Positions 5,495 through 49,973 of a stretch of DNA of 64,000 nucleotides are shown piece after piece. Location of the stretch: contig CANRHB010000002.1 of assembly GCA_947630325.1 (NCBI GenBank), positions 81,002 to 145,001 on the forward strand. Direction: 5' to 3'. A program made the position numbers and the translations under genes. Under the pieces are notes generated by a model. That model saw nothing but the letters and a program-made list of their open reading frames with translations. It was not told the DNA's origin and did no database searches. Each line of letters begins with the position of its first letter. Position 1 is the stretch's first letter. The stretch comes from an uncultured Clostridia bacterium (GTDB lineage: Bacteria; Bacillota; Clostridia; Christensenellales; Borkfalkiaceae).

Positions 5495-5497
5495 AAT

Positions 5498-5884
5498 ACG
5501 AGCGGGCCTGTAAGCCGGGTTCTGTCGAGCGCGGTCATTTATCTACGCCTACCGTCGCCGATAGGCTCAAGCGTTATTCACGGCACTCCCTCGGGCGGGC
5601 AACCCACATGAGAGAGGCCCAAACTTGCATCGGACGGGGTTTACATGGCACGGGGCGTTACCGTCCCGTCGGTGAGCTCTTACCTCGCCTTTCCATCCTT
5701 GCTCGCCGCCGCGGGTGTTTCCCGTGGGCGCCCTCTATAAAGAGGGACTCGGCGGGCGGTCTATTTCTGTTGCACTTTCCTTGAAGTCGCCTTCACCTGA
5801 CGTTATCAGGCGTCCTGCCCTGCGATGCCCGGACTTTCCTCACCGCAATTTCTTGCGCCGCGACCGCGTAGTCCGCTCGTATCG
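5498..5884 (-). ncRNA. rnpB: RNase P RNA, bacterial class
   Basis: Catalytic RNA that trims the 5' leader from pre-tRNAs together with the RnpA protein. Read on the minus strand it has the family hallmarks: GAGGAAAGTCCGGGC near the 5' end, a GGATGGAAAGGCGAGGTAAG stretch, AAGAGCTCACCG, a conserved GACAGAACCCGGCTTA near the 3' end, and terminal sequences that pair as P1 (ACGAGCGG with CCGCTCGT). The length of about 385 nt suits a type A RNA; type A rather than B is judged from overall layout only. An extended -10 (TGCTATAAT) lies just upstream and a hairpin just downstream. Ends are approximate to a few bases. Confidence 0.96.
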
Positions 5885-44064: not shown

Positions 44065-44093
44065 TTGCCAAGCCGCGCACGGTTTGCTATAAT
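44065..44093 (+). promoter_or_regulatory. tRNA-Pro transcription unit promoter
   Basis: TTGCCA (44065-44070), 17 nt, extended -10 TGCTATAAT (TATAAT 44088-44093). Transcription should start near 44100, about 150 nt upstream of the tRNA. Confidence 0.82.
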
Positions 44094-44140
44094 GATGTGG
44101 TAAATTTGTTGTGGCAAAAATAGCGTTTGCCGCAAAACAA

Positions 44141-44246
44141 GGCTCCCTAAAAATATTGCAATGCAAGATTTTTAGGGAAGAGGAGCCGTGGCGGAGCAAA
44201 ATTGCCCTTGCCGCTTGTGGGAAGGGCTCAGAGCGTAGCCCACGGC
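44141..44246 (+). ncRNA. Structured leader of tRNA-Pro, copy 1 of a repeated RNA element
   Basis: Lies between the promoter and tRNA-Pro. Helix I is a 15-bp hairpin (44145-44159 with 44163-44177, one mismatch). Helix II is GCCGTGG (44185-44191) with CCACGGC (44240-44246), enclosing a GCCCTT...AAGGGC hairpin with a CTTG loop. The same layout recurs at 44418-44522, where helix II is GCAACAA with TTGTTGC. Five of seven pairs change on both sides, which is compensatory evidence for an RNA structure. Function unknown. Confidence 0.6.
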
Positions 44247-44251
44247 GACGA

Positions 44252-44328
44252 CGAGGCGTAGCGCAGTTTGGTAGCGCGCTTGGTTCGGGACCAAGAGGTC
44301 GTGGGTTCAAATCCCGTCGCCTCGACCA
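44252..44328 (+). tRNA. tRNA-Pro (anticodon CGG)
   Basis: A 77-nt cloverleaf. The acceptor stem is CGAGGCG/CGCCTCG with discriminator A and encoded CCA. The D arm is around GCGCAGTTTGGTAGCGC. The anticodon stem is CTTGG/CCAAG with loop TTCGGGA, giving anticodon CGG, which reads CCG. The T arm is GTGGGTTCAAATCCC. The 3' half is duplicated at 44525-44566 next to an integrase, so the gene is the likely attachment target of the island to its right. Confidence 0.97.
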
Positions 44329-44363
44329 AGGAATGGCATGGACGTTTGTCCATGCCATTCCTT
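44328..44363 (+). terminator. Hairpin after tRNA-Pro
   Basis: Perfect 16-bp stem AAGGAATGGCATGGAC/GTCCATGCCATTCCTT with a GTTT loop, directly after the CCA end. The T tract is poor (GTATGTTG), so it may act in processing as well as termination. Confidence 0.75.
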
Positions 44364-44378
44364 GTATGTTGTTTGTAT

Positions 44379-44406
44379 CCCACGACCTCTTTCGGCGCGA
44401 ACCAAG
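44379..44406 (-). other. Inverted partial copy of the tRNA-Pro anticodon-to-T-arm segment
   Basis: Read on the minus strand this stretch begins CTTGGTTCG and ends AGAGGTCGTGGG, matching tRNA positions 44279-44305 apart from changes in the middle. It is therefore complementary to the tRNA over most of 27 nt. Confidence 0.6.
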
Positions 44407-44417
44407 AATATTTAAGG

Positions 44418-44522
44418 GCTCCCTAAAAATCTTGCAACGCAAGATTTTTAGGGAAGAGGAGCAACAACGGAGCGCACATGCCCTTTCCGCTTGCGGGAAG
44501 GGCTCAAAGCGGAGTTTGTTGC
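44418..44522 (+). ncRNA. Structured leader element, copy 2
   Basis: Second copy of the element at 44141-44246. Helix I is a perfect 15-bp hairpin (44421-44435 with 44439-44453). Helix II is GCAACAA (44461-44467) with TTGTTGC (44516-44522). The inner hairpin GCCCTTTCCG/CGGGAAGGGC has a CTTG loop. It is followed by a truncated tRNA-Pro instead of an intact one. No separate promoter is seen, so it depends on read-through past 44363 or is silent. Confidence 0.55.
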
Positions 44523-44524
44523 GA

Positions 44525-44566
44525 CGAGGGACCAAGAGGTCGTGGGTCCTGCCGTCGCCTCGACCA
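44525..44566 (+). pseudogene. Truncated tRNA-Pro copy / probable attachment site
   Basis: Keeps CGAGG of the acceptor 5' strand, then jumps to a 20-nt block identical to the tRNA (44528-44547 equals 44287-44306). The T loop is altered, and the last 14 nt through CCA are identical (44553-44566 equals 44315-44328). It lacks the D arm and most of the anticodon arm. It lies 75 bp from the integrase stop, which suits an att site or a decayed second tRNA gene. Confidence 0.75.
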
Positions 44567-44612
44567 AAAACGCCCATTTTTGAGCATTTTTTGCCCAAAA
44601 ATGGGCGTTTTT
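44566..44612. terminator. Bidirectional terminator between tRNA fragment and integrase
   Basis: AAAAACGCCCATTTTT and CAAAAATGGGCGTTTTTT form a strong stem around a GAGCATTTTTTGCC loop, with T runs on both strands. It lies 29 bp after the integrase stop. Confidence 0.85.
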
Positions 44613-44640: not shown

Positions 44641-45879
44641 CTATTCGCGGTTTTGGGGCACAATTTGGGGCATAAAACTCCATTTGTCGAGCTTTTTTCC
44701 CTCTTTCAAGAGAAATTCGTCAGAGAGATCGGTATAGGCATTTCCCAATGCGCCGAGCGAATGCCCGACAAACTCCGACCGCGCCGCGTCCGAAACGCCA
44801 AACTCACAGCACCGCGTATAAAAGGTCGTCCGCAAGTCGTAGATCTTGTGTTCGGGCAAGATCAATTTGAATCGTTCGCGCAGTCGGTTCGTGCCGTAAA
44901 ATTTAATTTCTCCCTCTGTTAAAAAGGGTCTCAGCGGCGCAATGATCGGAATTTTCTTGTACTCGGTTTTCCCGTTCTTTCGCTTGCTGTTCACCGACAC
45001 GATGAAATCTCCCTCGACCCTCGCCGTCTCAAATTCGTTCGGACGCATTCCCGTGTAGAGCGCGACGGCGAACATCTTCTGATAGGGCGTTCCCGCCGAC
45101 GCTTCGAGCAAGATCTTCTCCTCCTCTTTCGCGAGTGCTTTGCCGTGCTGCGTCTCATGCTGTTTGTGAATGACAAGTTCCATCGGATTGTGCACGAGAA
45201 TGCTGTGCTTTACTGCGAGGCGAAAGATCATATTTAGGATCGAACACACCTCATCGGCTGTTTTGCCCTTGCCCTGCTCCTTGATGCCGTCGATGAGGGC
45301 TTGACAGTCGGCAGGCATGATCTTTTCGATCGCCGTCTGCCCGAAGATCGGCTCAATGTGATTGTGGTAGCGGTTGAGCGTGTTTTTATACGTCTCCGCC
45401 GTGACCTTGCGTTTGTAATATGTTTCAAAGATGTAGTCCGCGAACTCGCCCAACTTTTTGGACGCCGGTTTTTTCTCGGGCGCCTTTCTGCCCGTTTTTT
45501 CCGCCTCTTTGAGTTTGACGAGAAACTTCATCTTTGCTTCTTCGAGGTTGTTCGCAGAGGCGGTGATGTTGTAGCCGTGTCTGCGATAGCGCACCTCATA
45601 GTTCCAATGGGTCTTCCCGCTCTTGCGCTTGCGGATATGAGCGGTGCAACCCTCCGTCCTGAATTCTTTTCTGAATGCTTTCGGCATTTGCATGATCTCC
45701 TTTTCGCCGAAGATCCGAAAAGACTTCTCAATATCGCTTTTTCTCTGTTCTGCTCCCAAGGCGCGATCTTTTACGATGTTTTCAGCTGTCGCCTGCAACA
45801 ACTGTCGCGCAAGCGCGTTTTCTTCCTCGGGAATGTTTTTGATGGTTACAATAATACTGTTCAGTTCCTGCTCGGTCAA
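44641..45879 (-). CDS. Tyrosine recombinase (integrase)
   Basis: A 412-residue phage/ICE-type integrase. After an N-terminal region and an AP2-like arm-binding part (THWNYEVRYRRHGYNITASA), it has a SAM-like core-binding domain (LGEFADYIFETYYKRKVTAE, KNTLNRYHNHIEPIFGQ). The catalytic domain has the first Arg in VALYTGMRPNEF, the second in IYDLRTTFYTRC, a His in SEFVGHSLGAL and the nucleophile Tyr382 in LGNAYTDL. The usual HxLRH box is Y-D-L-R-T, so both histidines are replaced, which is unusual. The start is a TTG at 45879 with AAGGAG only 2-3 nt away, and an in-frame stop lies just upstream. It faces the tRNA-Pro fragment, consistent with tRNA-targeted integration. Confidence 0.92.
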   Translation of the reverse strand: MTEQELNSIIVTIKNIPEEENALARQLLQATAENIVKDRALGAEQRKSDIEKSFRIFGEKEIMQMPKAFRKEFRTEGCTAHIRKRKSGKTHWNYEVRYRRHGYNITASANNLEEAKMKFLVKLKEAEKTGRKAPEKKPASKKLGEFADYIFETYYKRKVTAETYKNTLNRYHNHIEPIFGQTAIEKIMPADCQALIDGIKEQGKGKTADEVCSILNMIFRLAVKHSILVHNPMELVIHKQHETQHGKALAKEEEKILLEASAGTPYQKMFAVALYTGMRPNEFETARVEGDFIVSVNSKRKNGKTEYKKIPIIAPLRPFLTEGEIKFYGTNRLRERFKLILPEHKIYDLRTTFYTRCCEFGVSDAARSEFVGHSLGALGNAYTDLSDEFLLKEGKKLDKWSFMPQIVPQNRE

Positions 45880-46970: not shown

Positions 46971-47228
46971 TTACTTTGCATATTTCGACCTCAGCTGTGC
47001 CATTGTTGCGGGACCGTCCAAGAGCTCGCCACTGTCTGCCTGCGCCTTGCCCGCCATGATCTTGTTGTACATCTCCGCCTGCGCAAGACGCTGTTCATAC
47101 GTCGCCATGCTCATAACGACCATGTCCCCGTACCCGTTTTTGGTGACGAAGATCGGCTCGTTCGTCGCGTTGCACATCTCGGAAATTTTCGTCGTGTCCC
47201 TCAAATCCCGAATCGGAATGATCTGCAT
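46971..47228 (-). CDS. Phd/YefM-family antitoxin, no toxin partner seen
   Basis: An 85-residue protein: PIRDLRDTTKISEMCNATNE, PIFVTKNGYGDMVVMSMATY, then EQRLAQAEMYNKIMAGKAQ. This is the Phd/YefM fold that binds its own operator and neutralises a RelE/Doc-type toxin. No toxin ORF follows before the terminator at 46890 or precedes it. After the stop the same frame stays open for another 21 codons (RVSPHPHELDEITF...), so a longer ancestral tail may have been cut by a nonsense change. Ten consecutive G lie between the ribosome site and the ATG. Confidence 0.88.
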   Translation of the reverse strand: MQIIPIRDLRDTTKISEMCNATNEPIFVTKNGYGDMVVMSMATYEQRLAQAEMYNKIMAGKAQADSGELLDGPATMAQLRSKYAK

Positions 47229-47230
47229 AA

Positions 47231-47290
47231 CCCCCCCCCCTCCAATCTATACTATACCACGATTATAGCATAATTATGCTTCATTGTCAA
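47231..47290 (-). promoter_or_regulatory. Phd promoter with palindromic operator and poly-G tract
   Basis: TTGACA (47285-47290), 17 nt, TATAAT (47262-47267). The spacer contains the perfect palindrome GCATAATTATGC (47268-47279), a likely Phd operator. A G10 run (47231-47240) sits between GGA and the ATG. Confidence 0.85.
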
Positions 47291-47307
47291 GGGTTTCAAA
47301 CAGAAAA

Positions 47308-49797
47308 TCATGCCGTTTCGTCGTAAATATCCGTGCGGAGGGAGGAAGTGTCGTAGCCGCCGACCTTCATTTCGGAAGCGTGGCGGTTGATGCCCGTATA
47401 GGAGAGCGAACTATCCTCATAGCGTTTGAATTTGAACACGGCGTCGTTCATGAGCGGCGCGTTGAACACGTTCAAGCTGACGAGAAGTTCAAAATCTTTC
47501 ACGTCCAAACCCGTCACGCGCTTAAAAAGCCCCGGCTCCAACTGCGTAATGACTTCTTTTAGCGTCTGTTCGCGGTAGTCGGTGAGGTACATGAACACGG
47601 GAACGCGGGTCGCAAACTTGATGAGTTTTTGTTGAATTTCCTTGCGCTTGCTCTTATATTCCTTTTCGTCCTCGGAGAGTTCCTTTTTCTCCGCTTTGGA
47701 AAGTTCGCGTTCGCTTGCCGTCTCCTTTGCCTTTTTGATTTTTTCGGACTTATTGATGATCGTCTCCAAGTCCTCGTTGAGGGAGCGGAACCCCTCGATA
47801 CGGCGCAAAGCCTCCATTGCCTGCGGGTTGTTCATGAGCCGCTCCAAAGTGGCGTTGTCCACGTTGACGAGGAGCGCCGATTCCCACCGCCGCGCAAGGA
47901 GGGTCGCCGTCGTGCCGCTCGTTGCGATGTCGAGAATGCCCGCCGCATCGATCTGTTTCATGCTGCTTCCGTCGTAGGCGAGAACGGGCAGAAACTTGAT
48001 GAACTCGGCAACTTTCTTTTCGGGATTTACTTCGTCCACGTTGAGGCGGCAAGCGTAGTCGGAAATTTGCCGCAACGCTCGGTCGGGTGCAAAGTCGAAC
48101 ACATAGCATTCGCGTTTCAAAATTTCCTCGGCGTTGGGGTCGAGGCCCGTGGGATTTTTGACCGTCCACGGCGACTGCACGCGGAAAGCGGCTTGGAAGT
48201 AGGTTTCGGGGCTCGTGAGGTTGCGGAGCATAAAGATGCCCGTCCACGGCTTGACCGTGACCCCCGTGGTGAGTTTTCCGCAGGTGAGCGTAATGGACTT
48301 GCTTTCGAGCGGCTCCTCCATGGCGGCCTTTACGGGCGGGAGAGCGGCAAGACCTATCCCCGCGTCCGCGCCCGCACAGACGACGACATGATAGTCATGA
48401 TAGAAAGTGTTGCGCTTTTCTGCGAGCAAATTCCGCATGGCGTGGCAGGCGGCGACGCTCGGCAAGAACCACACGGTGTGCAGAAGAATGTTTTGCAATC
48501 TTCCCGAGGAGAACGGAAGCGGCGGTTTCTTCGCGCCGAGGCGCAAATTGTCGATACTCGTCTCCAAATAGGCGCCGCGAATGAGGTCGAGCCACTTTTG
48601 CACCTCGTCCTCATATTTGAAGCGCGCAAACTCGCCCACGCCCTCGGCGGAGAAAAACACGTTGAGATCAAACTCATCGTATTCGCCCATGGCGGCGATC
48701 TCCTTGATACTGTCGGGCAGTTGATAGGTCATGAGCACCATGCGGGGCAGGGCTTCGTAAGGGTTGCGCCCGCGCGTTTCGTCCCAATTCAGTTTTTCGC
48801 GCTGTTCATCCGAATAGGTCCAGTTGTAAATTTGCTCCTCGATAAACTCTCCCGCCGCGATCGCACGGAAGGGCGTGCCCGATAAATACAGGTACGAGCG
48901 CGTGGAAATGGGCATGTAGTCCTCGTTGAAGTAGTCCATGCCACCGCTCTCGGCGCGTTTTTCCCTGTCGTCCTCGGCCTCGAAGAGTTCCTTCGCCTTC
49001 TCGCGCCATGCGCCGTAGTGATACTCGTCAAAGACGACCATGTCCCACAGCACATTGTGCGCCCAAACGTTGTTGAGTTTAATTCCGCCCGCCGCATTCT
49101 TCCCCAAAAAGTCCTGGAAAGAGGCAAAGCAGACAAACGGTTTGGTTTTATCTGCTTGCTCATAGGTCAGCCCGTCGTGGGAGAGAAACTGCCAGCCCGC
49201 AAAATCGACATGGCTTAAAAGGTCCTCCTGCCACGCGCTCTGCACGGCGGGTTTGAAGGTGAGCACGAGAATTTTGGTGAAGTTCATGCGCTTGGCGAGT
49301 TCATAGGTCGCAAAGGTCTTGCCGAAACGCATTTTGCAGTTCCAGAGGAAATGCGGCGGTTTGCCGCCCTCCATGTATTCGGAAAAATAAGCCGCCGTGC
49401 GGGAGACCGCCTCCTCCTGTTCGGGGCGCATTTTGAAATCGAGATGACGGTTTTCCTGCACTTCCGTGCCGCGTTTGAGGGAGAGAATGGCGGACTCCAC
49501 GTCCTTCACGCCGCATTTGAACCATTCGCCGCCGGGACTTGAAAACCCGCGCGCCCGCAACAGACGGTGCACGTCGTGATCGGTAAACGCCGACCCGTCT
49601 GCCAACATGGCAGAAACTTCCAGTTCGATCTTGTAAGACCGTTCAGGAAGCTCCACGGGATACTGTTCGGCGACGCGCTCTTGTACGCTCCTTGTGGTAT
49701 ATCCGATTTTGAGCATATTCGGAAACCGACTATCGCTGTAAGCGTAAATTTTGGGTTGCGTTGAACGATTTCTTATAGGAAAGAAGTCATCAGACAT
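47308..49797 (-). CDS. GIY-YIG/T5orf172-type domain fused to SF2 helicase (restriction-like)
   Basis: An 829-residue protein. Residues about 16-100 match a GIY-YIG-like T5orf172/MUG113 domain: KIYAYSDSRFPNMLKIGYTT, R41 and the E91-W-F box GGEWFKC. An SF2 helicase follows: motif I NCKMRFGKT (159-161 GKT), motif II DEYH (257-260), motif III YLSGTPFRA, and motif VI QAAFRVQSPW. A Lys/Glu-rich coiled coil (KKAKETASERELSKAEKKEL) precedes the C-terminal region. This suggests an ATP-dependent DNA translocase-nuclease, the restriction-type subunit for the two methylase genes upstream on the same strand. The ATG at 49797 has GGTGG upstream; a GTG four codons earlier is possible. The target is unknown. 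Confidence 0.85.
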   Translation of the reverse strand: MSDDFFPIRNRSTQPKIYAYSDSRFPNMLKIGYTTRSVQERVAEQYPVELPERSYKIELEVSAMLADGSAFTDHDVHRLLRARGFSSPGGEWFKCGVKDVESAILSLKRGTEVQENRHLDFKMRPEQEEAVSRTAAYFSEYMEGGKPPHFLWNCKMRFGKTFATYELAKRMNFTKILVLTFKPAVQSAWQEDLLSHVDFAGWQFLSHDGLTYEQADKTKPFVCFASFQDFLGKNAAGGIKLNNVWAHNVLWDMVVFDEYHYGAWREKAKELFEAEDDREKRAESGGMDYFNEDYMPISTRSYLYLSGTPFRAIAAGEFIEEQIYNWTYSDEQREKLNWDETRGRNPYEALPRMVLMTYQLPDSIKEIAAMGEYDEFDLNVFFSAEGVGEFARFKYEDEVQKWLDLIRGAYLETSIDNLRLGAKKPPLPFSSGRLQNILLHTVWFLPSVAACHAMRNLLAEKRNTFYHDYHVVVCAGADAGIGLAALPPVKAAMEEPLESKSITLTCGKLTTGVTVKPWTGIFMLRNLTSPETYFQAAFRVQSPWTVKNPTGLDPNAEEILKRECYVFDFAPDRALRQISDYACRLNVDEVNPEKKVAEFIKFLPVLAYDGSSMKQIDAAGILDIATSGTTATLLARRWESALLVNVDNATLERLMNNPQAMEALRRIEGFRSLNEDLETIINKSEKIKKAKETASERELSKAEKKELSEDEKEYKSKRKEIQQKLIKFATRVPVFMYLTDYREQTLKEVITQLEPGLFKRVTGLDVKDFELLVSLNVFNAPLMNDAVFKFKRYEDSSLSYTGINRHASEMKVGGYDTSSLRTDIYDETA

Positions 49798-49802
49798 AGA
49801 TT

Positions 49803-49973
49803 TTACCACCGTTGAAAGGCGTTTGCAAAAGTTTGACTTTTATCAATAGCAGAAAGACATTCAACAAAATTGTGCAAATAAGCATTCACATAAGAATACC
49901 TTGGCGTAAGGCAATCAACAATACAAAGTGCACATTGTTTCTTTGTTTCGTCTAATAATAATTGATAGATCAT
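49803..49973 (-). CDS. Small protein of unknown function (56 aa)
   Basis: ATG at 49973 has a strong GGAGG site 6 nt upstream. The product begins MIYQLLLDETKKQCALCIVD and carries four Cys (CALC, DC, EC). It lies 21 bp after the 138-residue gene and ends 5 bp before the helicase start, so it belongs to the same operon. AT content is higher than in the core genome. No family is recognised. Confidence 0.65.
   Translation of the reverse strand: MIYQLLLDETKKQCALCIVDCLTPRYSYVNAYLHNFVECLSAIDKSQTFANAFQRW

What the first reader, a model, noticed from the sequence alone, without database searches (positions are those of the whole stretch)
44065..44612. Repeated structured RNA with a covarying stem linked to tRNA-Pro
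A promoter at 44065-44093 starts a transcript about 150 nt before tRNA-Pro(CGG). The leader folds into a 15-bp hairpin and a second domain closed by GCCGTGG/CCACGGC around a CTTG-capped hairpin. The same unit recurs at 44418-44522, with the closing stem changed to GCAACAA/TTGTTGC: five of seven pairs change on both sides. Compensatory change indicates selection on RNA structure rather than a simple DNA repeat. Copy 2 precedes a truncated, CCA-ending tRNA-Pro remnant and a strong terminator. I know of no described leader of this kind on a bacterial tRNA. Possible roles are tRNA processing or decay control, a tRNA-like decoy, or part of the island's attachment machinery.
Basis: partly seen in the sequence, partly recalled or inferred. 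Interest (0 to 1): 0.75.

Follow-up and report, generated by a model that had tools for sequence, protein, structure and literature searches.

The report
Mobile double-hairpin element beside tRNA genes
The two repeated structures beside this tRNA gene look like copies of a small mobile DNA element that folds into hairpins, is scattered through a group of uncultured gut bacteria, and often sits exactly at the ends of tRNA genes; the enzyme that would move it was not found.

Summary
In detail: two ~112-nt double-hairpin units flank tRNA-Pro(CGG), with five of seven closing pairs changed on both sides. The interpretation changes. The unit, here called E, is a dispersed element, matched in 94 of 101 sampled genomes of the genus, 69 of 200 of the order and 2 of 198 others of the phylum. 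Its fold covaries strongly (other families: 34 of 35 pairs change on both sides). Repeat copies with and without E, and tRNA-Pro loci with and without E between promoter and tRNA, indicate insertion. Of 91 copies in five genomes, 41 have their CGTC head within 4 nt of tRNA or tmRNA sequence, against 89 of 1820 random positions. In the window both copies lie inverted: one between the conserved promoter and tRNA-Pro, one at an anticodon-loop breakpoint of a tRNA-Pro remnant. A dedicated tRNA leader is not supported. The nearest known kind is the CGTC-tagged palindromic repeats (PMC3733652), also without a known transposase; E differs in size, architecture, phylum and tRNA preference. Three candidate mobiliser families do not track copy number.

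The parts
44065..44093 (+). promoter of tRNA-Pro(CGG), TTGCCA-17-TATAAT
   Evidence: in 18 of 30 tRNA-Pro(CGG) loci of the genus a similar promoter ends 7-12 nt before the tRNA
44140..44251 (-). element copy E1; head (CGTC end) abuts the complement of tRNA nucleotide 1; model R1 match 97.5 bits
44144..44178 (.). P3 hairpin of E1
   Evidence: (I4)
44185..44246 (.). P1/P2 composite hairpin of E1 (closing stem GCCGTGG/CCACGGC)
   Evidence: covariation
44252..44328 (+). tRNA-Pro(CGG), intact
44327..44364 (+). terminator-like hairpin directly after tRNA-Pro
44379..44406 (-). inverted tRNA-Pro fragment (anticodon arm and part of the T stem)
   Evidence: I8-I10; similar arrangement in L300 and L315
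44416..44527 (-). element copy E2; head abuts the tRNA-Pro remnant at about position 35 (anticodon loop); model R1 match 102.4 bits
44528..44566 (+). tRNA-Pro 3' half remnant ending in CCA
   Evidence: D3, D5
44566..44612 (+). terminator; the same sequence directly follows the intact tRNA-Pro in G006 and G076 (L309, L299)
44641..45879 (-). phage-type integrase gene
   Evidence: PF22022 2.9e-10, PF14659 1.5e-9; similar DNA directly after the terminator in L299 and L309

Best explanation
Shown by comparison: E is a non-coding element of roughly 100-125 nt with conserved ends: an unpaired CGTC-containing head, a two-part hairpin (P1/P2), a linker (GCTCCTYTTCCC in most genus copies), a second hairpin (P3) and a GGGAGCCC-like tail. 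It is dispersed in many copies across an order of uncultured Clostridia and is present or absent at otherwise similar sites. Its heads are strongly enriched at the mature 3' and 5' ends of tRNAs and tmRNA and at breakpoints of tRNA fragments; other copies lie within hairpin repeats. Inferred: E is moved in trans, as a folded single strand, by an unidentified nuclease that recognises the unpaired CGTC head, as GTAG-tagged REPs are thought to be moved by RAYT transposases. It would target C-rich ends of folded DNA, which tRNA ends and hairpins offer. In the window E1 landed between the promoter and tRNA-Pro and lengthened the leader to about 150 nt; E2 landed in the anticodon loop of a tRNA-Pro copy of which only pieces remain, beside an integrated island. 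Any effect on tRNA expression would be secondary.
For: Distribution. Covariation: A1, aligned by sequence, 90.1% of cells paired against 39-52% slid, score 0.414 against 0.143 shuffled; A2, 132 distinct rows, 93.9%, 31 of 35 pairs changed on both sides; A3, other genera and families, 92.3%, 34 of 35. tRNA contact 41 of 91 against 89 of 1820 random positions in the same loci; 13 of the 20 CCA contacts and 5 of the 6 nucleotide-1 contacts are with genes that ARAGORN calls. Presence/absence: hairpin-repeat copies with and without E and an ORF-end copy, G060:C12 against G060:C16 and G000:C24; tRNA-Pro(CGG): promoter 7-12 nt before the tRNA in 18 of 30 loci, but upstream of E, 158-384 nt from the tRNA, in 5 of the 6 loci with E at the 5' end. 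In L298 and L314 the promoter is followed by a tRNA-Pro 5' half, inverted E, a piece of the anticodon arm and then an intact tRNA-Pro.
Against: No mobilising enzyme was found: Y1 transposase (24 of 101 genomes), IS110 (4 of 101) and reverse transcriptase (23 of 101) do not track copy number; the own genome and E-rich G001, G005, G006, G007 and G019 lack Y1. The clearest with/without pairs are paralogous repeats in one genome, so precise loss of E is not excluded; several pairs differ by some nt, so exact ends and lack of target duplication are not proven. No promoter was found upstream of E in L299. 50 of 91 heads touch no recognised tRNA sequence, and tandem copies among the 41 are not independent. 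Long-term covariation could also mean a cellular role.
Confidence: 0.7

Rival explanations
1. E is a functional tRNA trailer/terminator RNA: placed after CCA it ends tRNA transcripts or controls their 3' ends, and it spreads with tRNA genes and islands.
For: 20 of 91 heads lie at a tRNA or tmRNA 3' end, 13 of them beside intact genes; the same placement in two other families, 2 of 23 copies. The tail is followed by T in 69% of 139 copies and by T-runs in some other-family copies. P3 has more G-U in the trailer strand.
Against: Copies inverted before or inside tRNA sequence, or away from tRNAs, are as frequent or more so; P1/P2 show no trailer-strand bias.
Confidence: 0.15
2. E is part of the attachment machinery of tRNA-integrating islands, carried in att sites together with the tRNA 3' end.
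For: A tRNA 3' end cut at about position 56/57 followed by E recurs after intact tRNA or tmRNA genes (G006 Gly, G005 tmRNA, L268 Ser); an integrase gene lies beside the window copies.
Against: E also lies in hairpin repeats and at an ORF end with no tRNA, and before tRNAs in inverted orientation.
Confidence: 0.08
3. Copies beside inverted tRNA fragments arise by replication template switching at hairpins, not by transposition.
For: 18 of 135 copies have complementary flanks scoring at least 10 against 10 of 402 swapped controls; alternating tRNA 3' end, E, antisense tRNA 3' end, hairpin, tRNA 3' end.
Against: Explains arrays, not dispersed single copies with a constant head and tail.
Confidence: 0.05
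4. One reading: a cis-acting leader RNA controlling tRNA-Pro processing or decay.
For: E1 lies in the predicted 5' leader of tRNA-Pro; 6 of 30 tRNA-Pro(CGG) loci have E there.
Against: 24 of 30 do not; E occurs after and inside tRNA sequence and away from it.
Confidence: 0.02

Closest known systems
CGTC-tagged palindromic repeats (CGTC REPs), Di Nocera et al. 2013, PMC3733652 (parts 1-3 of 8 and found passages read)
   Same: Unpaired CGTC (also TGTC, CCTC) at one end of a palindrome, high copy number, subfamilies with alternative complementary stems, insertions inside genes and inside other palindromes, no dedicated transposase.
   Different: E is about 112 nt with two hairpins and a conserved linker, not 20-40 bp with one 8-9 bp stem; its first stem pair is mostly G-C, not A-T; it lies in Clostridia, whereas the paper lists CGTC repeats in Proteobacteria, Chlorobi, Bacteroidetes, Spirochaetes and Thermotogae; it prefers tRNA ends, which the parts read do not report.
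GTAG REPs mobilised by RAYT (IS200/IS605-like) transposases, as hypothesised in PMC3733652
   Same: Tagged hairpin, miniature mobile DNA without coding capacity.
   Different: Different tag; RAYT-type PF01797 does not track E.
RtT repeats after E. coli tyrT (recalled; two searches found no paper on them)
   Same: Tandem structured repeats after a tRNA, each starting with a copy of the tRNA 3' end.
   Different: As recalled, RtT is one locus; E is dispersed, beside many tRNAs, tmRNA and non-tRNA sites.
Palindromic candidate structured RNAs of human microbiomes, PMC8040213 (passages read)
   Same: Structures found on both strands, many terminator-like, one beside phage integrase domains.
   Different: Sequences not compared; the passages seen name Bacteroidetes examples and no tRNA-end placement.

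Membership tests
CGTC-tagged REP | unpaired CGTC or near variant at one end | tested here: met
   C, G, T, C at 93, 94, 96, 96% of 139 copies, which were found with a model containing them; unpaired in the consensus fold and in nearly all single folds (G174 L259 is an exception)
CGTC-tagged REP | 20-40 bp single palindrome with 8-9 bp stem and 4-5 nt loop | tested here: not met
   about 112 nt, two hairpins, 35 modelled pairs
CGTC-tagged REP | A-T pairs at first and second stem positions | tested here: not met
   first pair G-C in 123 of 129 lettered rows
CGTC-tagged REP | short unpaired tail, mostly CCA | tested here: not met
   P1 is followed by a CTCCTYT-type linker and a second hairpin
GTAG REP / RAYT system | GTAG tag and associated Y1 transposase | tested here: not met
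   CGTC head; PF01797 in 24 of 101 genomes, no relation to copy number, p=0.77
MITE | terminal inverted repeats and target duplication | tested here: inconclusive
   consensus head TCGTCGC and tail GGGAGCCC are not inverted repeats; no target duplication seen in the pairs inspected, but several are diverged
IS110 with bridge RNA | IS110 recombinase available in the genome | tested here: not met
   PF02371 in 4 of 101 genus genomes, not in the own genome
Any Rfam 15 family | match above gathering score | tested here: not met
   only tRNA in the region; all others below their gathering scores

The most novel reading that the evidence does not exclude
E founds a class of mobile elements whose insertion is directed by nucleic-acid structure: an unknown enzyme joins the CGTC head to the mature ends and loops of folded tRNAs and hairpins. 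That would be a structure-targeted (possibly tRNA-guided) transposition system without a known transposase, kept across a bacterial order.
Probability: 0.3. Interest if true: 0.8.

Novelty: new variant of a known kind. Interest (0 to 1): 0.56.

Why it matters
PMC3733652 states that CGTC repeats apparently lack a dedicated transposase. E is a large, conserved element of similar kind with present/absent sites and a sharp target preference, in small genomes, so the question of what moves CGTC repeats could be tested by gene correlation and biochemistry. It also warns that a covarying 'leader' on a tRNA can be mobile DNA.

Tried and rejected
Y1/RAYT, IS110 and reverse transcriptase as mobilisers: presence does not track copy number. 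Copy counts are capped at 36 scored candidates per genome.

Autonomous version: three P3-only matches in G080 were read for a flanking transposase; they are short A/T-stem hairpins, two of them in another repeat, with ordinary genes around.

Strand of the fold: minimum free energies favour the antisense strand (P1/P2 in 111 of 124, P3 in 100 of 124 copies), which loop terms confound. G-U against A-C on A2: P1 48/24, P2 19/40, P3 104/52. G-U in both strands' folds. The hairpins disagree, so I draw no conclusion.

A tRNA-Leu with/without pair printed (G005:C3:71713 against L227/L137/L132) was dropped: one search finds no intact tRNA in the first locus and a different isoacceptor in the second, so they are not the same site. 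The tmRNA pair (G019 with E, G000 without at that junction) is weak, because G000 has an E 56 nt after its tmRNA.

Integron attC was considered from recalled motifs and dropped, because the stem sequence is not conserved. Template jumping by reverse transcriptase was considered for CCA junctions and not favoured, since E also lies in repeats and RT does not track it.

Rows dropped: one search used 163 copies (91, 72 of 81 matches) and its printed output was cut. One search kept 139 and one search kept 135 of the 163 (duplicates, under 50 bits, or too little flank). Searches used 124 copies of at least 60 bits. A1 used 21 of the 26 copies listed. One search used 91 of the 108 matches; the 17 left out had E above 1.5e-5. 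The 30 tRNA-Pro loci are the best-scoring ones (93 genomes matched).

Paper searches on Christensenellales repeats, palindromes at tRNAs, Rickettsia elements, RtT, structured RNAs, REPs and tRNA satellites listed no description of E by title or opening of abstract; that library holds open-licence papers only. PMC2864571, PMC12306157 and PMC6006769 were opened for passages only and did not help.

Full report
What is in the window. The promoter at 44065-44093 and tRNA-Pro at 44252-44328 are real too.

It is a family. A search of the own genome with copy 1 gave further copies; of six such loci checked, five hold tRNA or tmRNA genes near the match (L003, L006-L009, not L010). With another copy as query, 18 of 41 genomes, own included, matched by sequence alone. 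From 21 copies I made alignment A1 and a covariance model R1. R1 matched 94 of 101 genus genomes (1291 matches in all, median 10 per genome, capped per genome), 69 of 200 sampled from the order, in 35 of 102 genera, and 2 of 198 other genomes sampled across the phylum, with weaker scores. A pattern scan of named genomes hit 52 stretches, titled Clostridia, Clostridiales, Firmicutes, Candidatus Borkfalkia or Candidatus Coproplasma. The order name Christensenellales is recalled, not from a call.

Structure. In the orientation seen after tRNAs: (N)CGTC head, P1 with one bulge, internal loop, P2, linker GCTCCTYTTCCC, P3, tail GGGAGCCC. Covariation is strong and specific: A1 90.1% of cells paired against 39-52% for slid partners; A2, 132 distinct rows, 93.9%, 31 of 35 pairs changed on both sides; A3 from other genera and families, 36 distinct rows, 92.3% against 41-46% slid, 34 of 35. 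A2 and A3 were aligned to the model, which favours the structure; A1 was aligned by sequence. Nothing in Rfam matches E.

Where it sits. I read the flanks of 91 copies in five genomes. The head lies within 4 nt of tRNA or tmRNA sequence in 41: at a sense 3' end in 20 (Arg, Leu, Gly, Phe, Ala, Cys, Met, Val, Ser, tmRNA), at the complement of tRNA nucleotide 1 in 6 (Pro, Arg, Ser, Leu), and at internal positions in 15 (24-27, 31, 35, 36, 46, 52). Random positions in the same tRNA-rich loci gave 89 of 1820. ARAGORN calls the gene in 13 of the 20 and 5 of the 6; the rest are tRNA fragments or genes cut by contig ends. 49 of 91 copies have a called tRNA or tmRNA gene within 300 nt. The 41 include tandem copies that are not independent. 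The other 50 include hairpin repeats, an ORF end and sites before serine-recombinase operons. In other families E directly follows tRNA-Arg in L256 and lies 2 nt after tRNA-Ser in L268 (2 of 23 copies).

It inserts. Repeats with and without E were found by flank comparison, for example CTGCCGC|E|TGTTTGTTTAGG (L159) against CTGCCGC|GTTACTTTTAAGG (L157). An ORF end beside a serine-recombinase operon has E in G060:C12 and not in G060:C16 or G000:C24 (sequences). These are paralogous pairs, so precise loss is not excluded. The tRNA-Pro(CGG) loci give a comparison at one gene: in 18 of 30 the -10 hexamer ends 7-12 nt before the tRNA. In 6 of 30 (L299, L309, L310, L315, L318 which is the window, L319) an inverted E abuts the tRNA 5' end. 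In 5 of those 6 the promoter lies beyond E, 158-384 nt from the tRNA; none was found in L299. In L298 and L314 the promoter is followed by a tRNA-Pro 5' half, inverted E, an anticodon-arm piece and an intact tRNA-Pro. I claim insertion, not its exact chemistry.

The window explained. The terminator that follows the tRNA remnant in the window follows the intact tRNA directly in L299 and L309, so the simplest reading is that the segment with E2, the inverted tRNA fragment and the remnant was added between tRNA-Pro and its terminator. L300 and L315 have a similar segment. An integrase gene lies beyond it.

How it works. Mobility is inferred from comparison. The mechanism rests on analogy with tagged REPs: the unpaired head would be the recognition tag of an unknown nuclease acting on folded single strands. 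Three candidate families do not track copy number. A trailer or terminator role remains a live rival for the CCA-adjacent copies.

Known or new. The CGTC-tagged repeats of PMC3733652 share tag, copy number, alternative complementary stems, insertion in palindromes and lack of a transposase. E fails their size, stem and tail features, so I do not file it as a member; it may work like one. The searches named under Tried and rejected listed no description of E.

Noticed in passing
L303, L301, L294, L308, L313, L316, L133, L200 and others: A second tRNA-linked unit: an antisense copy of tRNA positions ~57-70, then GAGGGTGGAGGCGCGAGCG..., then the hairpin GCGCGCCGCCAAAGGCGC, then a sense copy of tRNA 57-76. 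Its start was found in 11 of 30 tRNA-Pro(CGG) loci, 50-55 nt after the tRNA in 10 and 266 nt in one. The hairpin was found 20 times in the fetched loci, mostly directly before a tRNA or tmRNA fragment starting at about position 57 (the loci are a biased sample).
   Followed up: partly
L148, L133, L268: Arrays after intact tRNA or tmRNA genes in which a tRNA 3' end followed by E recurs; in L148 and L133 antisense tRNA 3' ends and hairpins alternate with them, like products of strand switching.
   Followed up: partly
L201, L227, L203, L148: Upstream of tRNA-Leu(UAA) a sequence complementary to its anticodon arm (TTTTAAGTCCCTTG) recurs with or without E.
   Followed up: no
window 46971-49809: Beyond the integrase: a Phd/YefM-type antitoxin and a large protein with T5orf172 and type III restriction helicase matches, possibly island cargo or defence.
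   Followed up: no
L246, L216, L226 (G000:C24, G060:C12, G060:C16): E lies inverted just before the ribosome-binding site of a short ORF upstream of serine-recombinase-like reading frames; it may travel with these elements (recombinase named from recall of the motif).
   Followed up: partly
window 5495-5879: RNase P RNA gene on the minus strand.
   Followed up: no
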